Positions 6,015-64,000 of a stretch of DNA of 64,000 nt are shown piece by piece (position 1 is the first letter of the stretch; every line of letters begins with the position of its first letter). The stretch spans positions 1 through 64,000 of the forward strand of contig DASUCV010000017.1 in assembly GCA_036275915.1 (NCBI GenBank). The letters run 5' to 3'. Both the position numbers and the translations under genes were made by a program. The notes beneath the pieces are model-generated. The model was not told the origin of the DNA and made no database searches. It was given only the letters and a program-made list of their open reading frames with translations. This DNA is from Candidatus Polarisedimenticolaceae bacterium (GTDB lineage Bacteria > Acidobacteriota > Polarisedimenticolia > Polarisedimenticolales > DASRJG01).

Positions 6015-7730
6015 CTAGAGCACGGTCTCGCGGACGACTTCCTCGACGCTCGTCTGGCCGTCCTTGAGCTTTTGGAGGCCCGACATGCGGAGCGTGATCA
6101 TTCCCTCTTCCATCGCCTTCCTCCGGAGCTCCATCGCGGAAGCGCCCGAGAGGATCAGCTCGCGCAGCTCGTCACTGATCTCCATGACCTCGAAGAGCCC
6201 GACGCGGCCGCGGTAGCCGGTGTTGTTGCAGTTCGGGCAACCGCGCCCCTTGAGGAGCCGCACCTTGCTCGCCTCGTCGACGGAGAATCCGATGTCGACG
6301 AGCGCCTGCGCCGGGACCTGGATCTCTTCCTTGCAGTCCTTGCAGATCCGGCGCACGAGACGCTGGGCGCAGATCAGGTTGACCGAGGTCGCGACGAGGA
6401 ACGGCTCGATGCCCATGTTCATGAGCCGGTTGATCGTCGAGGGCGCATCGTTCGTGTGAAGCGTCGAGAGGACGAGGTGGCCCGTGAGCGCGGCCTTGAC
6501 CGCGATCTCGGCGGTTTCGAAGTCGCGGATCTCGCCGACGAGGATGATGTTCGGGTCCTGGCGCAGGAAGGCGCGCAAGGACGCGGCGAAGTTGAGGCCG
6601 ATCTGCTCCTTCATCTGCACCTGGTTGATGCCGTGCAGGTTGAATTCGACCGGGTCCTCGGCGGTCATGATGTTCGTCTCCGGCGTGTTGACGCGCGCGA
6701 TCGACGAGTAGAGCGTGTTCGTCTTGCCGGACCCCGTCGGTCCCGTCACGAGCACCATGCCGTAGGGCTTCAAGATCTGACGCTCGAACTTCCCGAGCGA
6801 CTCGACCTCGAAGCCGAGACGCGTCATGTCGAGCACCAGGTTGTCCTTGTCGAGGAGACGCATGACGATCTTCTCGCCGAAGAGCGTCGGGAGGACGGAG
6901 ACGCGGTAATCCATCTCCTTCATCTTCCCCTGGAGCTTCATCTTGATCTTGATGCGGCCGTCCTGAGGAAGGCGCTTCTCGGAGATGTCGAGCTTCGCCA
7001 TGATCTTGAGGCGGCTCGTGATCGCGTCCTTCAGCTTCATCGGCGGGTGCATGATCTCGTACAGCACGCCGTCGACACGGAAGCGGACGCGGAAGTCCTT
7101 CTCGTACGGCTCGATGTGAATGTCGGAGGCGCCCTTCTTGATCGAGTCGGTGAGGATGATGTTCACCAGGCGGACGACCGGCGCTTCTTCGGAGACCTGC
7201 TCGAGCTTGTGGACATCGATCTCCTCGTCCTCTTCCATGAGCTCGAGGGCTTCGGTGTCTTGCTCGGCCATCTCGTCCATGACCTTCTTGAGCTCGAGGG
7301 CATGGGACGAGCCGTAGTACTTCTCGATCGCCTCGCGGATCGCGATCTCGCTCGCGACGACCGGCTCGACGTTGTAGCCGGTCATGAACTTGATGTCGTC
7401 CATCGCGAAGACGTTCGTCGGATCGGCCATCGAGATGGTGAGCGTCGCCCCGGTGCGGTTCACCGGGAGGACGAGGTACTTCTGCGCGACCTCGGACGGG
7501 ATCAGGTTGATGACCGACTCGTCGATCTCGAAGTGGCGGAGGTTGATCGATGGAACGCCGTACTGATCGGAGAGGAGCTGCGTGATGTCGTCTTCCTTGA
7601 CGAACCCGAGCTTGACGAGGTTGAACCCGAGCTTCCCCCCGCCTTTCTTCTGCGCTTCGAGTGCTTCTTGGAGCTGTGGCTGGGTGATCATCCCCGCCTT
7701 GAGGAGCATCTCTCCGAGCTTGACCGCCAT
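6015..7730 (-). CDS. pilB: PilB, pilus extension ATPase
   Basis: The 571 residues begin with a GSPII_E N-terminal domain (about 1-160). The motor domain has Walker A GPTGSGKTNTLYSS, an Asp-box EDPVEFNLHG, GEIRDFETAEIAVKAALTGH and TLHTNDAPSTINRL. A tetracysteine zinc site (CKDC and CPNC, about 70 residues before the end) is typical of extension ATPases and absent from PilT. This gene heads a pilB-pilT-pilC-pilS-pilR run and has its own sigma-70-like promoter. GGAGG lies about 12 bases before the ATG. Confidence 0.95.
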   Translation of the reverse strand: MAVKLGEMLLKAGMITQPQLQEALEAQKKGGGKLGFNLVKLGFVKEDDITQLLSDQYGVPSINLRHFEIDESVINLIPSEVAQKYLVLPVNRTGATLTISMADPTNVFAMDDIKFMTGYNVEPVVASEIAIREAIEKYYGSSHALELKKVMDEMAEQDTEALELMEEDEEIDVHKLEQVSEEAPVVRLVNIILTDSIKKGASDIHIEPYEKDFRVRFRVDGVLYEIMHPPMKLKDAITSRLKIMAKLDISEKRLPQDGRIKIKMKLQGKMKEMDYRVSVLPTLFGEKIVMRLLDKDNLVLDMTRLGFEVESLGKFERQILKPYGMVLVTGPTGSGKTNTLYSSIARVNTPETNIMTAEDPVEFNLHGINQVQMKEQIGLNFAASLRAFLRQDPNIILVGEIRDFETAEIAVKAALTGHLVLSTLHTNDAPSTINRLMNMGIEPFLVATSVNLICAQRLVRRICKDCKEEIQVPAQALVDIGFSVDEASKVRLLKGRGCPNCNNTGYRGRVGLFEVMEISDELRELILSGASAMELRRKAMEEGMITLRMSGLQKLKDGQTSVEEVVRETVL

Positions 7731-9841: not shown

Positions 9842-10198
9842 TCAGGAGAGTTCCGCGACCAGATCCGCGGCGGCGCGGCGCAGCTCCCACCGGGCGCGTC
9901 CGAGGCTGCCGCCGGCGGCGAGTGCGATCGCGAGGAGGTAATCCGGCGTCACGGCTCGCATCATGACGTGACCGTCGACGCCCCCGACGGCGACCTCCGC
10001 CGCTGCGCCCAGACCTTCCCGGTCGAACGTGGACCCGACCTTCTCGAAGAGGTCGGCCATCGACGCGGCGATGAGCTCCGGCGAGGGGGCTCCGTTCCTC
10101 GCCCGCGCCGCCACCACGACCCCGTCGCGCGCCGCCAGGACGATGCACCGGGCCCCGTCGACGCCGGTCATGACCCGGCCCAGCACCTCATCGAGCAC
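9842..10198 (-). CDS. Roadblock/LC7-domain protein (MglB-like)
   Basis: The 118 residues form a single roadblock/longin-like domain. An N-terminal helix is followed by strands around GARCIVLAARDGVVVAARA, a helix (PELIAASMADLFEKV), and a strand pair with HVMMRAVTPDYLLAIALAAG. Proteins of this fold include MglB, the activator of the polarity GTPase MglA, which controls pilus-driven motility in Myxococcus. No MglA is present here, so the partner is unknown. The GTG start overlaps the upstream gene by 11 bases. The location between acc genes and pilM-Q suggests, but does not show, a motility role. Confidence 0.7.
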   Translation of the reverse strand: MLDEVLGRVMTGVDGARCIVLAARDGVVVAARARNGAPSPELIAASMADLFEKVGSTFDREGLGAAAEVAVGGVDGHVMMRAVTPDYLLAIALAAGGSLGRARWELRRAAADLVAELS

Positions 10199-10529
10199 GC
10201 CGTTCGCCCCTGCCCTTTCGGATTCTCTCGACCCACGCCTCGAGGCGCGCGGCGGCCTGCCCCTCGTCGAGGGCCCGGCGGAACGCCGGAGCCAGCGCCG
10301 CCGCCTCCGCAGGCGCGGCCGCCCGGGGCTCCGGCTCGCGCCGCTCGCGATACGTCACCGCGACGCGCCCCTCGAGCGAGGCGAGGAACGCACGCGCCTC
10401 CTCGTGGCCGGGCTGCGCGCGCAGGATCACGCGGACGATCCGTGCCGCGCCCGCCACGTCCCCCTGCGACGCGCGGAGCCTCGCGTGCGTGAGGGTCGCG
10501 AACTCTCCGTCCGGTCCCAAGGTTCCCAT
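10188..10529 (-). CDS. Small TPR-like helical protein
   Basis: This 113-residue protein has an N-terminal helical hairpin (ATLTHARLRASQGDVAGAARIVRVILRAQPGHEEARAFLASLE) that looks like one tetratricopeptide unit. A basic, Ala-rich helical tail follows. The chosen ATG at 10529 has CGGAG six bases before it; a GTG one codon earlier is possible. It overlaps the roadblock gene by 11 bases, so the two products probably act together. No specific function can be assigned. Confidence 0.6.
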   Translation of the reverse strand: MGTLGPDGEFATLTHARLRASQGDVAGAARIVRVILRAQPGHEEARAFLASLEGRVAVTYRERREPEPRAAAPAEAAALAPAFRRALDEGQAAARLEAWVERIRKGRGERRAR

Positions 10530-10539
10530 CACGGCTCCG

Positions 10540-10574
10540 AAAACAAAACGGCCCCCCCGCGGTGCGGGAGGGCC
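10540..10574 (-). terminator. Intrinsic terminator after the Cys-rich lipoprotein
   Basis: On the minus strand an 11-bp GC-rich stem (arms 10574-10564 and 10560-10550, one G-T pair) with a 3-base loop is followed by GTTTTGTTTT. This is a textbook Rho-independent terminator, about 25 bases after the stop codon at 10600. It likely ends the pilM-pilQ-lipoprotein transcript and separates it from the roadblock and acc genes. Confidence 0.88.
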
Positions 10575-10599
10575 GAGGATACTCGAAACACGGAATCGG

Positions 10600-11244
10600 T
10601 CAGTTACAGGGCGTCGTGAGGCAGGACGTGTTGTCGCCCTGATACGTGCCGGCGTTCGCGACGCACGTGGCCTGGCTCGAGACGTTGCACGCGCCCGAGA
10701 TCAAGCAGCACGCGCCGACGGGAACCGTCGCGCAGCTATTGACCAGGAGCGAGCCGCCGGTCGTCGTCGTCACGTTGTCGCCGGAGACCGTCGTGCCGCG
10801 GAATTTGAGGCTGAGCGCCGCCGAGTGCCCCGCGCGATTCCCCGCCACGAGGTCGGCCAGCCCCACCGGGGCGAACTGCGCGGTCGAGGAGCCGTTCGCC
10901 GCCACCGAGCCGCCGAGCCCCGCGCTGTAGGCCGCGACGCCGTTCCCGTCGTCCCACGTGTAGTTGATGTCGACACCCTGCATCAGGATGTCGTTGAACG
11001 GCGACTTGTCCGCCCCCGAGTTCTTCGGCTTGTTCTTGAGGGTCACGGTCGCGTTCGTGACCGTGTAGGTGCATCCCCCGCTGTTTTGATCGGCGGCGGC
11101 TGTGATCGGCGGGATCGTCAGGTTCTCGGTCTCGAGGACGACCGCCGGACCGTTACCGCTGTCGATCGCGCTGTTGCATCCCGCGATCCAGGCGCCTGCC
11201 GCGGCGAGGAGACAGCCGGCCAGGATCTTCGTCGTGTTACGCAT
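10600..11244 (-). CDS. Cys-rich secreted lipoprotein downstream of pilQ
   Basis: The product has 214 residues. The ATG at 11244 gives a lipoprotein signal peptide (KILAGCLLAAAGAWIAGC, lipobox ending at about Cys22); an upstream in-frame extension lies inside pilQ and is rejected. The middle is a beta-rich domain of unknown type. The C-terminal 40 residues carry six cysteines in GACC...C...C...C...C spacing, ending GDNTSC and PC, like short disulfide repeats on secreted proteins of high-GC environmental bacteria. It starts 12 bases after the pilQ stop and precedes a strong terminator, so it is probably the last gene of the pilM-Q operon. A pilus-secretin accessory role is inference. Confidence 0.72.
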   Translation of the reverse strand: MRNTTKILAGCLLAAAGAWIAGCNSAIDSGNGPAVVLETENLTIPPITAAADQNSGGCTYTVTNATVTLKNKPKNSGADKSPFNDILMQGVDINYTWDDGNGVAAYSAGLGGSVAANGSSTAQFAPVGLADLVAGNRAGHSAALSLKFRGTTVSGDNVTTTTGGSLLVNSCATVPVGACCLISGACNVSSQATCVANAGTYQGDNTSCLTTPCN

Positions 11245-11255
11245 GCGAGCCTCCG

Positions 11256-13190
11256 CTACCCGACCTTGACGATCTTGGGGGTGATGAAGATGAGCAACTC
11301 CCGGTTCTCGTTCGTGATGTTGCGGGTCTTGAACAGCCAGCCGAGGCCGGGGATCTTGCGGAACCACGGAACGCCCACCTCGCTCTTGCCTTCGTTGACG
11401 GTGAAGATGCCGCCGATGACCGCCGTGCCGCCGTCCGCGACGAGCACCTTCGTCTGCGCGCGCTGCGTGTTGATCGGCGGGACGTCACCGACGCGGTTGA
11501 CGAAGTCCGGCGTGTTGTTCTCGACGATGACGTCCATCGCGACCGTCCCGTCGGCGGTGATCTGCGGCGTGACCGCGAGGCGGAGCGACGCCGAGACGAA
11601 CTCGACGTTGATCTCGGTCGCGGTGGTGCTGACGACCGGGATGCGGACGCCCTGCTCGATCTCCGCGCGCTCGTTGTTCTGCGTCGCGATCTTCGGCGAC
11701 GACAGGACGCGCGCCTGCCCTTCCGTTTCGAGGTCGGAGAGCGCGATGTCGAGCGTGAACGAGTCCAGGATGTTCCCGAACGAGAACGCCAGCGTCGACG
11801 CGGTGCCGGCGCCCGGGAGGTTCAAGCCGTACTTCGCCGACGCGTTCGCGGGGAACTGAAGGCCGGTGCCCGTCCCCTTCGACGAGTCGGCGATCGCGTT
11901 GAAGCCCCACTTGATGCCGAGGTCCTGCGAGAACGACTTCGACGTCTCGACGATGCGGGCCTCGATCATGACCTGAGGCGTCTCGGCGTCCAGGGTCGAG
12001 ATGAGCTGATCGAGCGGCTGCACCTTCTTCGGGATGTCGCTGATGATGAGTGCGTTCGTGCGCTTGTCGACGATGACCTTGCCGCGGGTGGAGAGCACGC
12101 CGCCGTCGCGGATGACCTTCTCGACCTCGTCGGCCTTCGCGTAGGAGAGGGTGCGCGTCACCGTGATCGGCTCGACCTCGAGGTCCTTCGCCTCCTTGAG
12201 CTGCTTGCGGGCGGCCGCCTCCGACGCGAGCTTCGCGGTCGGCGCGATGCGGACCACGTTGTTCTCGAACTGCTTGTCGAGCCCGTTGTTCTTGAGAATG
12301 ATGTCCATCGCCTGGTCCCACGGCACGTTGTCGAGGACGATCGTCACCTTGCCGTCCACCGACGGGTCGAGGACGAAGTTCAGGCCCGAGATCTCGTGGA
12401 ACAGACGGAAGATCTGCTTGATGTCCGTGTCGACGAGGTTGAGCGAGATCCGCTTGCCGGAGTAGTTCGCCTTGTCGCCGATGATCGTCTTCGTCTCGAA
12501 ATTCCCCGACGTCGTCGGAGCCGGCGAGAGACCGGCCGGCGGCTCGTCGGCGCGGAGCGCGGGCTTCGCCAGGAGCTTCTCGATGGCGTCCTGCGAGACG
12601 GCGCGGCTTCCGCTCGTCGCGGCGGGAGCAGCGGAAGCCGTCGGGACCGCTTCCGTCTCCTTCGTCTCGACCGGGGCGACTTCGGCCTTCGCAGCCGTGG
12701 GCGTCGCCTTCGCGACCGCTTCGCCGCCGTCGGCGGCGCCGAACGCGATCTTCAGGTCGTTGCCGGCTTGCTCGATGTGGTACGGCACGGGACGGTCGAG
12801 ATCGACGACGACGCGCGAGACGGGCTCCGGCGACCGGCGGAACTGTCCGGCGCGCACGCGCAGGACCCCGCCGTCGTCGATCGGCACCTGGCTCTTGTCG
12901 ACGTGGCTGACCGTGCCCTTAAGATCGACGACGAGCCGCTGCGGGTTCGTCAGCTCGAGCGTCTCGTAGGCCATCGGCCCGGAGCCGCTGAGCGTGACCA
13001 CCGGACGGCCCGACGCGTCGTGCTCGACGCTGACGGTCCGGAGCTCCGCCGCCGCGGCCGGAGTCGCCGGGGGGGTGAGCGCCGGGGATTCGGATCCCGC
13101 CGTCGGCTCGGCCGTTCTCGCCTGGAAGGCGCTGCCAGCCAAGAGGAGCGCCGTCAGCGCCACCAGGGACAACTTGCCGTACTTGCTCAT
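11256..13190 (-). CDS. pilQ: PilQ, outer-membrane secretin of the type IV pilus
   Basis: The 644-residue preprotein has a signal peptide (LSLVALTALLLAGSAFQARTA). An AMIN peptidoglycan-binding domain follows (about 55-160, RLVVDLKGTVSHV to IAFGA), then a Pro/Ala linker. Next comes a secretin/STN domain (about 255-320, ISLNLVDTDIKQIFRLFHEI), a NolW-type domain (YAKADEVEKVIRDGGVLS) and the C-terminal secretin beta-barrel (VMIEARIVETSKSF through ELLIFITPKIV). PilQ is the ring through which the pilus exits. Its ATG overlaps pilP by 4 bases, and an upstream in-frame extension is spurious. Confidence 0.94.
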   Translation of the reverse strand: MSKYGKLSLVALTALLLAGSAFQARTAEPTAGSESPALTPPATPAAAAELRTVSVEHDASGRPVVTLSGSGPMAYETLELTNPQRLVVDLKGTVSHVDKSQVPIDDGGVLRVRAGQFRRSPEPVSRVVVDLDRPVPYHIEQAGNDLKIAFGAADGGEAVAKATPTAAKAEVAPVETKETEAVPTASAAPAATSGSRAVSQDAIEKLLAKPALRADEPPAGLSPAPTTSGNFETKTIIGDKANYSGKRISLNLVDTDIKQIFRLFHEISGLNFVLDPSVDGKVTIVLDNVPWDQAMDIILKNNGLDKQFENNVVRIAPTAKLASEAAARKQLKEAKDLEVEPITVTRTLSYAKADEVEKVIRDGGVLSTRGKVIVDKRTNALIISDIPKKVQPLDQLISTLDAETPQVMIEARIVETSKSFSQDLGIKWGFNAIADSSKGTGTGLQFPANASAKYGLNLPGAGTASTLAFSFGNILDSFTLDIALSDLETEGQARVLSSPKIATQNNERAEIEQGVRIPVVSTTATEINVEFVSASLRLAVTPQITADGTVAMDVIVENNTPDFVNRVGDVPPINTQRAQTKVLVADGGTAVIGGIFTVNEGKSEVGVPWFRKIPGLGWLFKTRNITNENRELLIFITPKIVKVG

Positions 13191-59138: not shown

Positions 59139-60187
59139 GCCTTTCGCGCGCCCGGCACGCGGAAGGCGCCGGTATCGAGACCTGGGCGGACACGATCGAA
59201 CCCGTGCCGCCGCGCCGCGATCTCGAACCGCCGCGCGAGAAGATCGGCGTAGGCGCCTTGGCCGCGCATGCGCGCGCCGAACTTCGGATCGTAGAGCTTG
59301 CCGCCGCGCGTCTCCCGGATCCGGTCGAGGATCTTCGCCGCGCGCGACGGCTCGTGCTCGGCGAGCCAGCTCGAGAAGACCTCCTTCACCTCGTGCGGCA
59401 GGCGCACGAGGATGTAGTTTGCGTAGGACGCGCCGGCGTCCGCCGCGGCGTCCAGAATCGCTTCGAGCTCGTGGTCGTTCAACGCGGGGATCATCGGCGA
59501 CGCCAGAACACCGGTCGGGACACCGGCCGCGGCGAGCGCCTTGACCGCTTCGAGACGCCGGTGCGGCGCCGAAGCCCGCGGCTCGAGGCGCCGCGCGAGG
59601 CCGGCGTCGAGCGTCGTGACCGAGAGGAAGACGCTCGCCCGCCGCTCGGCGGCCTCGGCGGCGATGAGGTCGAGATCGCGGAGAACGAGCGCCGACTTCG
59701 TCACGATGCTGAACGGGTTCCGGTGCGCCGCGAGGACCTCGAGGATCGCCCTCGTGATCTTCCGCTCGCGCTCGACCGGCTGGTACGGGTCGGTGTTCGT
59801 TCCGAGCGCGATCGGCGCGCAGACGTAGCCCGGCTTCGCGAGCTCGCGCGCGAGCAGGGCCGCCGCCTCGGGCTTGACGAAGATCTTCGTCTCGAAGTCG
59901 AGCCCGGGGGAGAGGTTCAAGTACGAGTGCGACGGACGCGCGAAGCAGTACGCGCACCCGTGCTCGCAGCCGCGGTACGGGTTGATCGAGACGTCGAACG
60001 GGACGTCGGGCGACTCGTTCCGCGTCAGGATGCGGCGCGCGGTATCGGTGAACGTCGTCGTCGCCGGGGACGGGGGCAGATCGGCCGGATCGAGATCGTC
60101 CCAGACCGGCTCGAGCGACCGGGGCTCGAACCGGCCGGCGGGATTCGCGACCGCGCCGCGTCCCTTCGGCGGTTCAGGCCCCGGCAC
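59081..60187 (-). CDS. SPL-like radical SAM protein (PA0069 family)
   Basis: The 368-residue protein has CEHGCAYCFARPSHSYLNLSPGLDFETKIFVK (CxxxCxxC), then GTNTDPYQPVERERKITRAILE, features of the spore-photoproduct-lyase-like family found in non-sporeformers. Its substrate is unknown. The GTG start gives PGPEPPKGRGAV; a shorter start is possible. It overlaps acvB by 58 bases at the 3' end and lies 4 bases after the DUF1579 gene. Confidence 0.87.
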   Translation of the reverse strand: MPGPEPPKGRGAVANPAGRFEPRSLEPVWDDLDPADLPPSPATTTFTDTARRILTRNESPDVPFDVSINPYRGCEHGCAYCFARPSHSYLNLSPGLDFETKIFVKPEAAALLARELAKPGYVCAPIALGTNTDPYQPVERERKITRAILEVLAAHRNPFSIVTKSALVLRDLDLIAAEAAERRASVFLSVTTLDAGLARRLEPRASAPHRRLEAVKALAAAGVPTGVLASPMIPALNDHELEAILDAAADAGASYANYILVRLPHEVKEVFSSWLAEHEPSRAAKILDRIRETRGGKLYDPKFGARMRGQGAYADLLARRFEIAARRHGFDRVRPGLDTGAFRVPGARKAQRGLFAEMNVAMREAKPS

Positions 60188-61997: not shown

Positions 61998-62073
61998 GCC
62001 GGTATAGCTCAGTCGGTAGAGCGGCTGATTCGTAATCAGCAGGTCCCCAGTTCAAGTCTGGGTGCCGGCTCCA
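61998..62073 (+). tRNA. trnT: tRNA-Thr (CGU)
   Basis: The 76-nt cloverleaf has acceptor GCCGGTA/TGCCGGC, anticodon stem GCTGA/TCAGC with loop TTCGTAA (anticodon CGU, codon ACG), T-loop TTCAAGT and an encoded CCA. It marks the boundary between high-GC backbone and a lower-GC region, a common site for integrated elements. Confidence 0.96.
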
Positions 62074-62307
62074 TGAAATCAAACACTTGTGCAGTTCGTG
62101 AAATCCTGCGACTAGGGAAAGCAACCTCGCAGTAACCCTGCGTCGTCGGGTAGTGAAGCCGTGTCCTCATGACTTGCGCTCCCGTCCGCAGGAACGTTGT
62201 TAGATGACCTCTTCACTTCGGCAACGATGGAATAGGGCAGCTCGCCCCCGGAGACGGTCGGCTGCGACGTGCTGTCATGCGGCGTTGAAGACATCGATGT
62301 ATTCCGA
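62074..62307. other. Lower-GC spacer next to tRNA-Thr
   Basis: The 234 bases between the tRNA and the helicase stop contain no convincing gene. A minus-strand frame of 70 codons (62324-62112) starts at TTG and has no family resemblance. An attachment-site duplicate of the tRNA 3' end was not seen within this stretch. Confidence 0.4.
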
Positions 62308-64000
62308 TTACTGGACAAGCCCAATTACCTTTAGGTAAGGAGAGGGTCTGGTTGCACGAGCATCGCCCCAAGGCATCCTGCGTGACTTCGGATACGAGCA
62401 GTACAGAAGGCGCTTGGATCTCGTAACCCCAACAAAGGCATTGCGTCGCTCCTCATCAAGTTCCGATCCCTTCGCTCGATAGTCGGGGAAAATGCCCTCC
62501 GCCATCCCGACCAGACAAACGACTTCGAATTCCAAGCCCTTGGCGGAATGGACCGTGAGCAATGCGACTCCATCCGAGTTGCGTTGCTGAGTAGTTCCGA
62601 GGGCAAGCGCGCTAAGGAAACCGGCGACGCTAGGGTTTTGCGCAGATGCGCGAAGGTAGGTGTCCCATTCTTGTAGCAAGACCTCGGTGTCGTCGTAGAT
62701 GGCCTGGCGCTCATCGTCTCCCAGCGAATCAGCAAAGGCCCGAAGCACGCGCGTCGGCCCCTTGATGTCTAGCCGCTGGGTCGGGGACACAACCTTAGCT
62801 AATGCCTCAACGCTTACCGCCCAGTCCGACGTTTTCGCCCGGGACACGACCTGCCGTAGGTACTCAATGAGGCCGTCGTGATCAATCGGTGGCTCACTGT
62901 TTGTACTGACATCCCATTTCTTGAGCAGCGCCGCGAGGTGAAATCTATCCTTCGGATTGGCGATCAGCCGCATTCCCAGTTGGAAGCTGTCTGCAGCTTT
63001 GGATTCATTCTCGTGAATGACTGAGACCCGCTTGTAATAAGGAATACTCCCGTTCTTCAACGCCTTCTCGACGTGCAAAAGGGCGAAGCGGGTGCGAGCT
63101 AAGACCGCGCATCGGCTCCAGGAAATGGACCCCTCCACATCTCGGTGTCCATGCTTCGAAAGCTCCTTTAGTTTCGCCACAACTAGGGAGGCTTCATTCT
63201 CCTCATTTTCACCCACCAAGAGCCCCAACTCGCCGGCAATTGGCAATTGTCCACTTACCGAATAGCTCTCTTGAAGCGATGATGCCGCACGGACAATTGC
63301 TTTCGAGCTCCTGAAGTTTTCTTTCAGCTCAATCGTCGCCGCGTTGAACTCTTCCGCAAAACGATCCATAAACTTTGGACTGGCCGTATTGAACCCATAG
63401 ATCGACTGCTTCGGGTCGCCAACCATCATCACGTTCTTGAATTCATCGCCGCACATCGCCGTGAGGACTGCGTACTGTGCTTCGTTTAGATCTTGTGCCT
63501 CATCGATGCAAACATATTTGAAGAGCCGGCGATAGAAGTCGGCTACTTTCGGATACTCCGTAAGCAAACGGTAGCTAAGCAGGAGAAGGTCTTCAAAGTC
63601 ATAGGCATTGCAAGCCCTGAGGCCGGCGTTGTAAGCCTCCATGATGCGTTGATTGAGTTCCAAGTCTGCAAACGGCTGCGAGATTGGATGTGCCTTGATC
63701 AACGCGATGCCTCGCAACCACCTATCCAGAGTTTCGCTTCTCGCCTTCGCGTCCCCCGATCTCATCAATTCTTCAGTAAGCAGCGGGTCTGCCGCTACAG
63801 CCTCCATCAGGATGCCTTTGCGGTCAGCCCAGTGCTCGAACAACTGGGGAGAGCCGCTAACTCCAACGTGTTTGCCGCGCTCCGAGAGCATGGTTAGACA
63901 AAATCCATGCAGGGTCCCAATGAACACCCGATCTAGGACGGAGCCTAGGTCTTGGAGGCGCTCTCGCATCTCATTGGCGGCCTTATTCGTGAACGTAAGA
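62308..64000 (-). CDS. UvrD/Rep-like superfamily 1 helicase (N-terminus beyond right edge)
   Basis: At least 563 codons are visible, and the frame is open through the right edge: codons after 63969 read TFTNKAANEMRERL, which is SF1 motif Ia, so the Met at 63969 is not the start. Other motifs: DEAQDLNEAQ (II), VGDPKQSIYGF (III), ENFRSS (IV), LLTVHSAKGLEFEVVCLVG (V) and RRNAFVGVTRSKRLLYCSYP (VI). Walker A lies off the window. GC is about 50-53% in sampled lines, unlike the neighbours. The size and C-terminus fit the helicases of phage-defence modules such as Gabija (GajB), but also other UvrD-like proteins. Confidence 0.92.
   Translation of the reverse strand, partial: LTFTNKAANEMRERLQDLGSVLDRVFIGTLHGFCLTMLSERGKHVGVSGSPQLFEHWADRKGILMEAVAADPLLTEELMRSGDAKARSETLDRWLRGIALIKAHPISQPFADLELNQRIMEAYNAGLRACNAYDFEDLLLLSYRLLTEYPKVADFYRRLFKYVCIDEAQDLNEAQYAVLTAMCGDEFKNVMMVGDPKQSIYGFNTASPKFMDRFAEEFNAATIELKENFRSSKAIVRAASSLQESYSVSGQLPIAGELGLLVGENEENEASLVVAKLKELSKHGHRDVEGSISWSRCAVLARTRFALLHVEKALKNGSIPYYKRVSVIHENESKAADSFQLGMRLIANPKDRFHLAALLKKWDVSTNSEPPIDHDGLIEYLRQVVSRAKTSDWAVSVEALAKVVSPTQRLDIKGPTRVLRAFADSLGDDERQAIYDDTEVLLQEWDTYLRASAQNPSVAGFLSALALGTTQQRNSDGVALLTVHSAKGLEFEVVCLVGMAEGIFPDYRAKGSELDEERRNAFVGVTRSKRLLYCSYPKSRRMPWGDARATRPSPYLKVIGLVQ

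What the first reader, a model, noticed from the sequence alone, without database searches (positions are those of the whole stretch)
61998..64000. Likely genomic island at tRNA-Thr(CGU) carrying a UvrD-like helicase
Right after the tRNA 3' end, GC falls to 32/60 (63181-63240) and 30/60 (63241-63300), from 42/60 at 60001-60060. The helicase gene, without neighbours of the same composition, points away from the tRNA. Such helicases often belong to defence modules (for example Gabija, where GajB follows an OLD-family nuclease GajA). The next gene to the right is the key unknown.
Basis: partly seen in the sequence, partly recalled or inferred. Interest (0 to 1): 0.6.

Follow-up and report, generated by a model that had tools for sequence, protein, structure and literature searches.

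The report
Mobile defence island beside tRNA-Thr
The helicase at the window's edge is half of a standard anti-phage system (Gabija) carried, with a second defence gene set (TerY-P type), on a 14.3-kb mobile DNA element inserted in a tRNA gene; the parts are of known kinds, but the same element chassis recurs with other cargo in a relative.

Summary
Past the window's edge lies a complete 14.28-kb integrative element. It is bounded by an exact 45-bp repeat of the 3' part of tRNA-Thr(CGU) (62029-62073 and, on the same contig, 76312-76356), is about 59% G+C against about 69% on both sides, and has a tyrosine integrase at its far end. The helicase (62308-64158, minus strand) is GajB. GajA, an OLD-family nuclease, lies 3 bp upstream, so a complete Gabija operon is present. 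The element also carries a TerY/PP2C/kinase triad of the TerY-P type, an AlpA-like putative excisionase and a rolling-circle-type Rep. One detail was wrong: the helicase reads toward the tRNA. It is not the housekeeping UvrD/PcrA, which lies on another contig. A relative in another family (G019) has the same tRNA-Thr(CGU) occupied by homologues of the integrase, p242, AlpA-like protein, Rep and p151, with different cargo (another UvrD-type helicase and a His-Xaa-Ser peptide system). So the element appears to belong to a small family with a fixed chassis and exchangeable cargo. Gabija and TerY-P are known; defence here is inferred from homology and intact motifs. Novelty is modest.

The parts
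61998..62073 (+). tRNA-Thr(CGU), the integration target; 3' part regenerated by the element
62029..62073 (+). att repeat, tRNA-side copy: 45 bp, identical to contig 76312-76356; starts in the anticodon loop and ends with the last base of the annotated tRNA
   Evidence: chance about 1e-18; same 45-bp boundaries in G019
62074..64000 (.). left end of the integrative element (element continues to contig position 76356; contig numbering continues window numbering)
62308..64000 (-). gajB, SF1A UvrD-like helicase (563 of 616 aa inside the window; full gene contig 62308-64158). gajA follows at contig 64162-66000
   Evidence: PADLOC PDLC00132 740 bits for the full gene, 658 bits for the window part; Walker A GPGSGKT and Walker B IDEAQD present

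Best explanation
This is an integrative mobile element of about 14.28 kb. Its tyrosine integrase recombines at the 3' half of tRNA-Thr(CGU) and the element regenerates the tRNA gene, leaving a 45-bp displaced copy at the far end. Its cargo is defence: a complete two-gene Gabija operon (gajA-gajB) and a TerY/PP2C/kinase triad of the TerY-P type. By homology, GajA and GajB form a complex that acts on invading DNA: the GajA ABC-ATPase/TOPRIM nuclease cuts it and the GajB helicase assists. The TerY-P triad is expected to act as a phosphorylation switch. The HUH Rep probably supports rolling-circle replication after AlpA/Int-driven excision. Shown here: boundaries, gene content, motifs and a sibling element. 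Inferred: excision, replication, expression and defence.
For: Exact 45-bp tRNA repeat bounding the element and integrase beside the far copy. G+C 0.591 inside against 0.685 and 0.694 outside. GajB 740 bits and GajA 684 bits against specific PADLOC models; gajA-gajB adjacent in the same order in nearly all related loci examined, from many phyla. TerY, PP2C and STK models hit on consecutive genes, in the same order as triads in other genomes. The integrase, Rep, GajA and p310 are nearly absent from related genomes. A sibling element sits in the same tRNA-Thr(CGT) of G019.
Against: No empty site was seen in a close relative: no other species of the genus was listed, and the same-family genome's contig ends 351 bp past the tRNA. 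No test of excision, expression or defence. An insertion-sequence remnant lies between the modules, so some decay is possible. In GajA the TOPRIM glutamate motif reads EGIVTEE, one residue longer than in relatives (EG-xTEE); its effect is unknown.
Confidence: 0.93

Rival explanations
1. The helicase is the housekeeping UvrD/PcrA and the G+C dip is ordinary local variation.
For: It matches the pcrA model at 299 bits and aligns along its length with PcrA structures.
Against: Far below the pcrA cut-off of 911 bits; another gene in the genome scores 808 bits as pcrA; GajB model 740 bits with GajA beside it; 14 kb of lower G+C bounded by an exact tRNA repeat.
Confidence: 0.01
2. The element is a decayed prophage or a phage satellite (for example of a filamentous phage) rather than an integrative plasmid-like element; the defence genes protect the host against competing phages and the Rep is a phage replication gene.
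For: The only phage relative of the Rep found is the replication protein of a 7-kb phage, XacF13 (41.8% identity over about half of the Rep); Pfam REP_ORF2-G2P is named after ORF2/G2P phage replication proteins; integrase and AlpA-like protein are phage-type families.
Against: No capsid, coat, packaging or lysis gene was recognised among the ORFs examined. RepSA of the AICE pSAM2 also matches the Rep. No related Rep in viral contigs or plasmids.
Confidence: 0.2
3. Compatible sub-hypothesis about history: the Gabija/p310 half and the TerY-P half of the cargo arrived separately, joined by the insertion sequence whose remnant lies between them.
For: Transposase fragment at contig 67250-67537 lies between the two cargo halves; the Gabija half is lower in G+C (0.52-0.58) than the integrase half (0.59-0.64).
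Against: A single pair of att repeats encloses everything; this concerns cargo history and does not contradict the main reading.
Confidence: 0.35

Closest known systems
Gabija (GajA-GajB) anti-phage system
   Same: OLD-type ATPase/TOPRIM nuclease and UvrD-type helicase as a tight operon in the usual order; motifs present; nearest relatives found are 48% (GajA) and 55% (GajB) identical, in a Phenylobacterium assembly
   Different: GajB is 616 aa, longer than the roughly 494-aa GajB of solved structures; the GajA glutamate motif carries one extra residue; an unrelated gene (p310) lies upstream, without evidence that it is a partner
TerY-P (TerY/PP2C/kinase triad)
   Same: All three proteins match the PADLOC models, in the order TerY-PP2C-kinase with gaps of 8 and 3 bp
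   Different: The kinase C-terminal half is a predicted long coiled coil plus low-confidence sequence, not matched by the STK_OB model beyond residue 276
AICEs of actinobacteria (pSAM2 type)
   Same: Tyrosine integrase at a tRNA gene, excisionase-like gene and rolling-circle Rep with RepSA similarity
   Different: No FtsK/SpoIIIE-type transfer gene was recognised; the replication protein also resembles phage ORF2/G2P types
tRNA-gene genomic islands as catalogued in Islander (PMC4383910)
   Same: Regenerated tRNA at one end, displaced tRNA fragment at the other, tyrosine integrase inside
   Different: Nothing essential; a new example

Membership tests
Gabija | GajA: ABC-type ATPase plus TOPRIM (OLD class 2) | tested here: met
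   PDLC00067 684 bits; Pfam AAA_15 and OLD-like_TOPRIM
Gabija | GajB: UvrD-type helicase adjacent to GajA | tested here: met
   PDLC00132 740 bits, 3 bp from gajA
Gabija | TOPRIM active-site residues (Glu, DxD or DxE) | tested here: met
   EGIVTEE and SDGED align with relatives, most of the nearer ones reading SDGE or SDAE; one-residue insertion noted
Gabija | Restricts phage | not testable with these tools
   needs experiment
TerY-P triad | TerY-like vWA, PP2C phosphatase and Ser/Thr kinase encoded together | tested here: met
   PDLC02224, PDLC02222, PDLC02223 hits on three consecutive genes
TerY-P triad | Kinase fused to a C-terminal OB-fold or zinc ribbon | tested here: inconclusive
   STK_OB matches only residues 9-276; single-sequence model of the C-terminal half is coiled coil then low confidence
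tRNA-gene integrative element | tRNA 3' repeat at both ends and an integrase | tested here: met
tRNA-gene integrative element | Empty site in a close relative | tested here: inconclusive
   same-family genome contig ends 351 bp after the tRNA
AICE | Int, Rep and FtsK/SpoIIIE-type Tra together (PMC3218068) | tested here: not met
   Int and Rep present; no Tra recognised by Pfam among the element's ORFs examined
Housekeeping UvrD/PcrA | Score above the pcrA/uvrD curated cut-off | tested here: not met
   299 bits against 911

The most novel reading that the evidence does not exclude
The element belongs to an undescribed family of integrative elements of this bacterial class, defined by the chassis integrase - p242 - AlpA-like - HUH Rep (phage ORF2/G2P-like) - p151 and by tRNA-Thr(CGU) as target with a 45-bp core. 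It swaps whole cargo cassettes: Gabija plus TerY-P here, a UvrD-type helicase plus a His-Xaa-Ser peptide-maturation system in G019. It may travel as a phage satellite or helper-dependent plasmid, and the His-Xaa-Ser system would by position be a candidate conflict system.
Probability: 0.35. Interest if true: 0.5.

Novelty: new member of a known kind. Interest (0 to 1): 0.33.

Why it matters
It shows a Gabija system with exact mobile-element boundaries: where it sits, with what it travels and which integrase moves it. The sibling element in another family suggests a fixed chassis with exchangeable cargo, so the cargo slot of such elements could be mined for defence genes, including the poorly understood His-Xaa-Ser system found in the same slot.

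Tried and rejected
Housekeeping PcrA identity: rejected. p310 as a third Gabija component: no relative in 396 genomes of the phylum, in plasmids or viral contigs, and none beside the related gajAB loci, so it is treated as unrelated cargo; its single-sequence structure model was useless (pLDDT 34), so no fold search was made. AICE membership: rejected because no transfer gene was recognised. Empty-site comparison with the same-family genome: the contig ends too soon. Related Rep in viral contigs and plasmids: none. A literature search for a filamentous-phage satellite of this type returned nothing.

Full report
Observation. The tRNA-Thr(CGT) gene at 61998-62073 is confirmed and the quoted base counts are exact. 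The drop in G+C exceeds backbone variation: 2-kb windows left of the tRNA have mean 0.685 and minimum 0.615, against 0.547 for 62074-64000. The window ends inside the gene.

Extension. The window is bases 1-64000 of a 155-kb contig, so the region to the right was read with the same numbering. A DNA search of the genome with the window's last 2 kb returned a second place, 76303-76356, matching the 3' part of the tRNA. The repeat is exactly 45 bp (62029-62073 and 76312-76356) and does not extend on either side; the expected number of such repeats by chance in 20 kb is about 1e-18. Between the copies G+C is 0.591 over 14.2 kb; beyond the far copy it returns to 0.694. The start-to-start distance is 14,283 bp. 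This is the standard signature of a tRNA-gene island as defined for Islander (PMC4383910).

Content (contig coordinates; positions above 64000 lie outside the window and so are listed here instead of under parts). gajB 62308-64158 (-); gajA 64162-66000 (-); p310 66214-67146 (-), weak DUF4365 similarity (E 0.008, below cut-off) with a D..D...QVK pattern like PD-(D/E)xK nucleases; transposase fragment rve_3 67250-67537 (-); kinase-like gene 67702-69882 (-); PP2C-type gene 69886-70662 (-); TerY-type gene 70671-71510 (-); DUF4236 gene 71768-72091 (+); p151 72088-72543 (-); HUH Rep 72661-73452 (-); a small overlapping ORF 73555-73818 (-); AlpA-like gene 73734-73988 (-); p242 74052-74780 (-); tyrosine integrase 74792-76249 (-), whose start lies 62 bp from the far repeat. 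The Gabija pair scores 740 and 684 bits against specific models. Relatives of GajA in bacteria and archaea of many phyla almost all have a GajB relative immediately downstream. Active-site motifs are present in GajA, GajB, TerY, kinase, Rep and integrase. The housekeeping pcrA-type gene is elsewhere.

TerY-P triad. All three PADLOC models are hit on consecutive genes with gaps of 8 and 3 bp, and triads with the same gene order were seen next to kinase relatives in other genomes of the phylum. TerY-P was reported as active against T7-like phages (PMC7699616 commenting on Gao et al. 2020); forms with an OB-fold on the kinase act alone, and forms with a zinc ribbon occur in CoCoNuT systems (PMC11090510). 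Here the STK_OB model matches only the kinase domain; the C-terminal half is predicted as a long coiled coil followed by low-confidence sequence. Whether this is a variant of the triad is undecided.

Mechanism. For Gabija, published work describes a GajA-GajB complex with a GajA TOPRIM nuclease active site (PMC10781630), and a preprint proposes that Gabija acts on linear DNA devoid of RecBCD and blocks phage genome circularisation (PMC12407980). I infer the same here from homology; nothing was tested. The Rep and AlpA-like genes suggest excision and rolling-circle replication of the element; this too is inference.

Sibling element. In G019, a genome of the same class but another family, tRNA-Thr(CGT) is followed by a UvrD-type helicase reading away from the tRNA, His-Xaa-Ser system genes (HxsA-like, HxsD, HxsB, HxsC), and homologues of p151 (45%), Rep (63%) and the AlpA-like protein (65%), before the contig ends. 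Near the end of a second contig lie an identical 45-bp core, an integrase homologue (53%) and a p242 homologue (31%). The two contigs are consistent with one element broken in assembly; that join is inferred. The 45-bp core has the same boundaries in both genomes, so the integrase family and its target agree. In 396 genomes sampled across the phylum only these two carry this Rep, and only two have GajA at 1e-50 or better.

Assessment. An ordinary but cleanly resolved case: known defence systems on a tRNA-gene integrative element. What is new is the particular element, its chassis shared across families, and the swap of cargo.

Noticed in passing
contig C17 76427-79998 (L005 16427-19998), just right of the far att repeat: A peptide-maturation cluster in backbone DNA: two similar short precursor-like ORFs in tandem (sharing VLDLEVEEIERRERSGGC), then a lantibiotic-dehydratase C-terminal-type gene and a dehydratase N-terminal-type gene as separate genes.
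   Followed up: partly
L114 6360-12532 (G019:C52): A His-Xaa-Ser system (HxsA-like, HxsD, HxsB, HxsC) with a UvrD-type helicase sits in the same tRNA-Thr slot that holds Gabija in the window genome.
   Followed up: partly
contig C17 66214-67146 (L005 6214-7146): p310 has no detectable relatives in the collections searched and only a weak DUF4365 hit; possible nuclease fold by motif.
   Followed up: partly
contig C17 64162-66000 (L005 4162-6000): GajA has one extra residue inside the conserved EG-xTEE motif (EGIVTEE).
   Followed up: no
L025 (G027:C40) 7122-7331 and 10144-11400: Another genome of the class has relatives of the integrase (42%) and AlpA-like protein (53%) about 3 kb apart, possibly a further element of this kind.
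   Followed up: no
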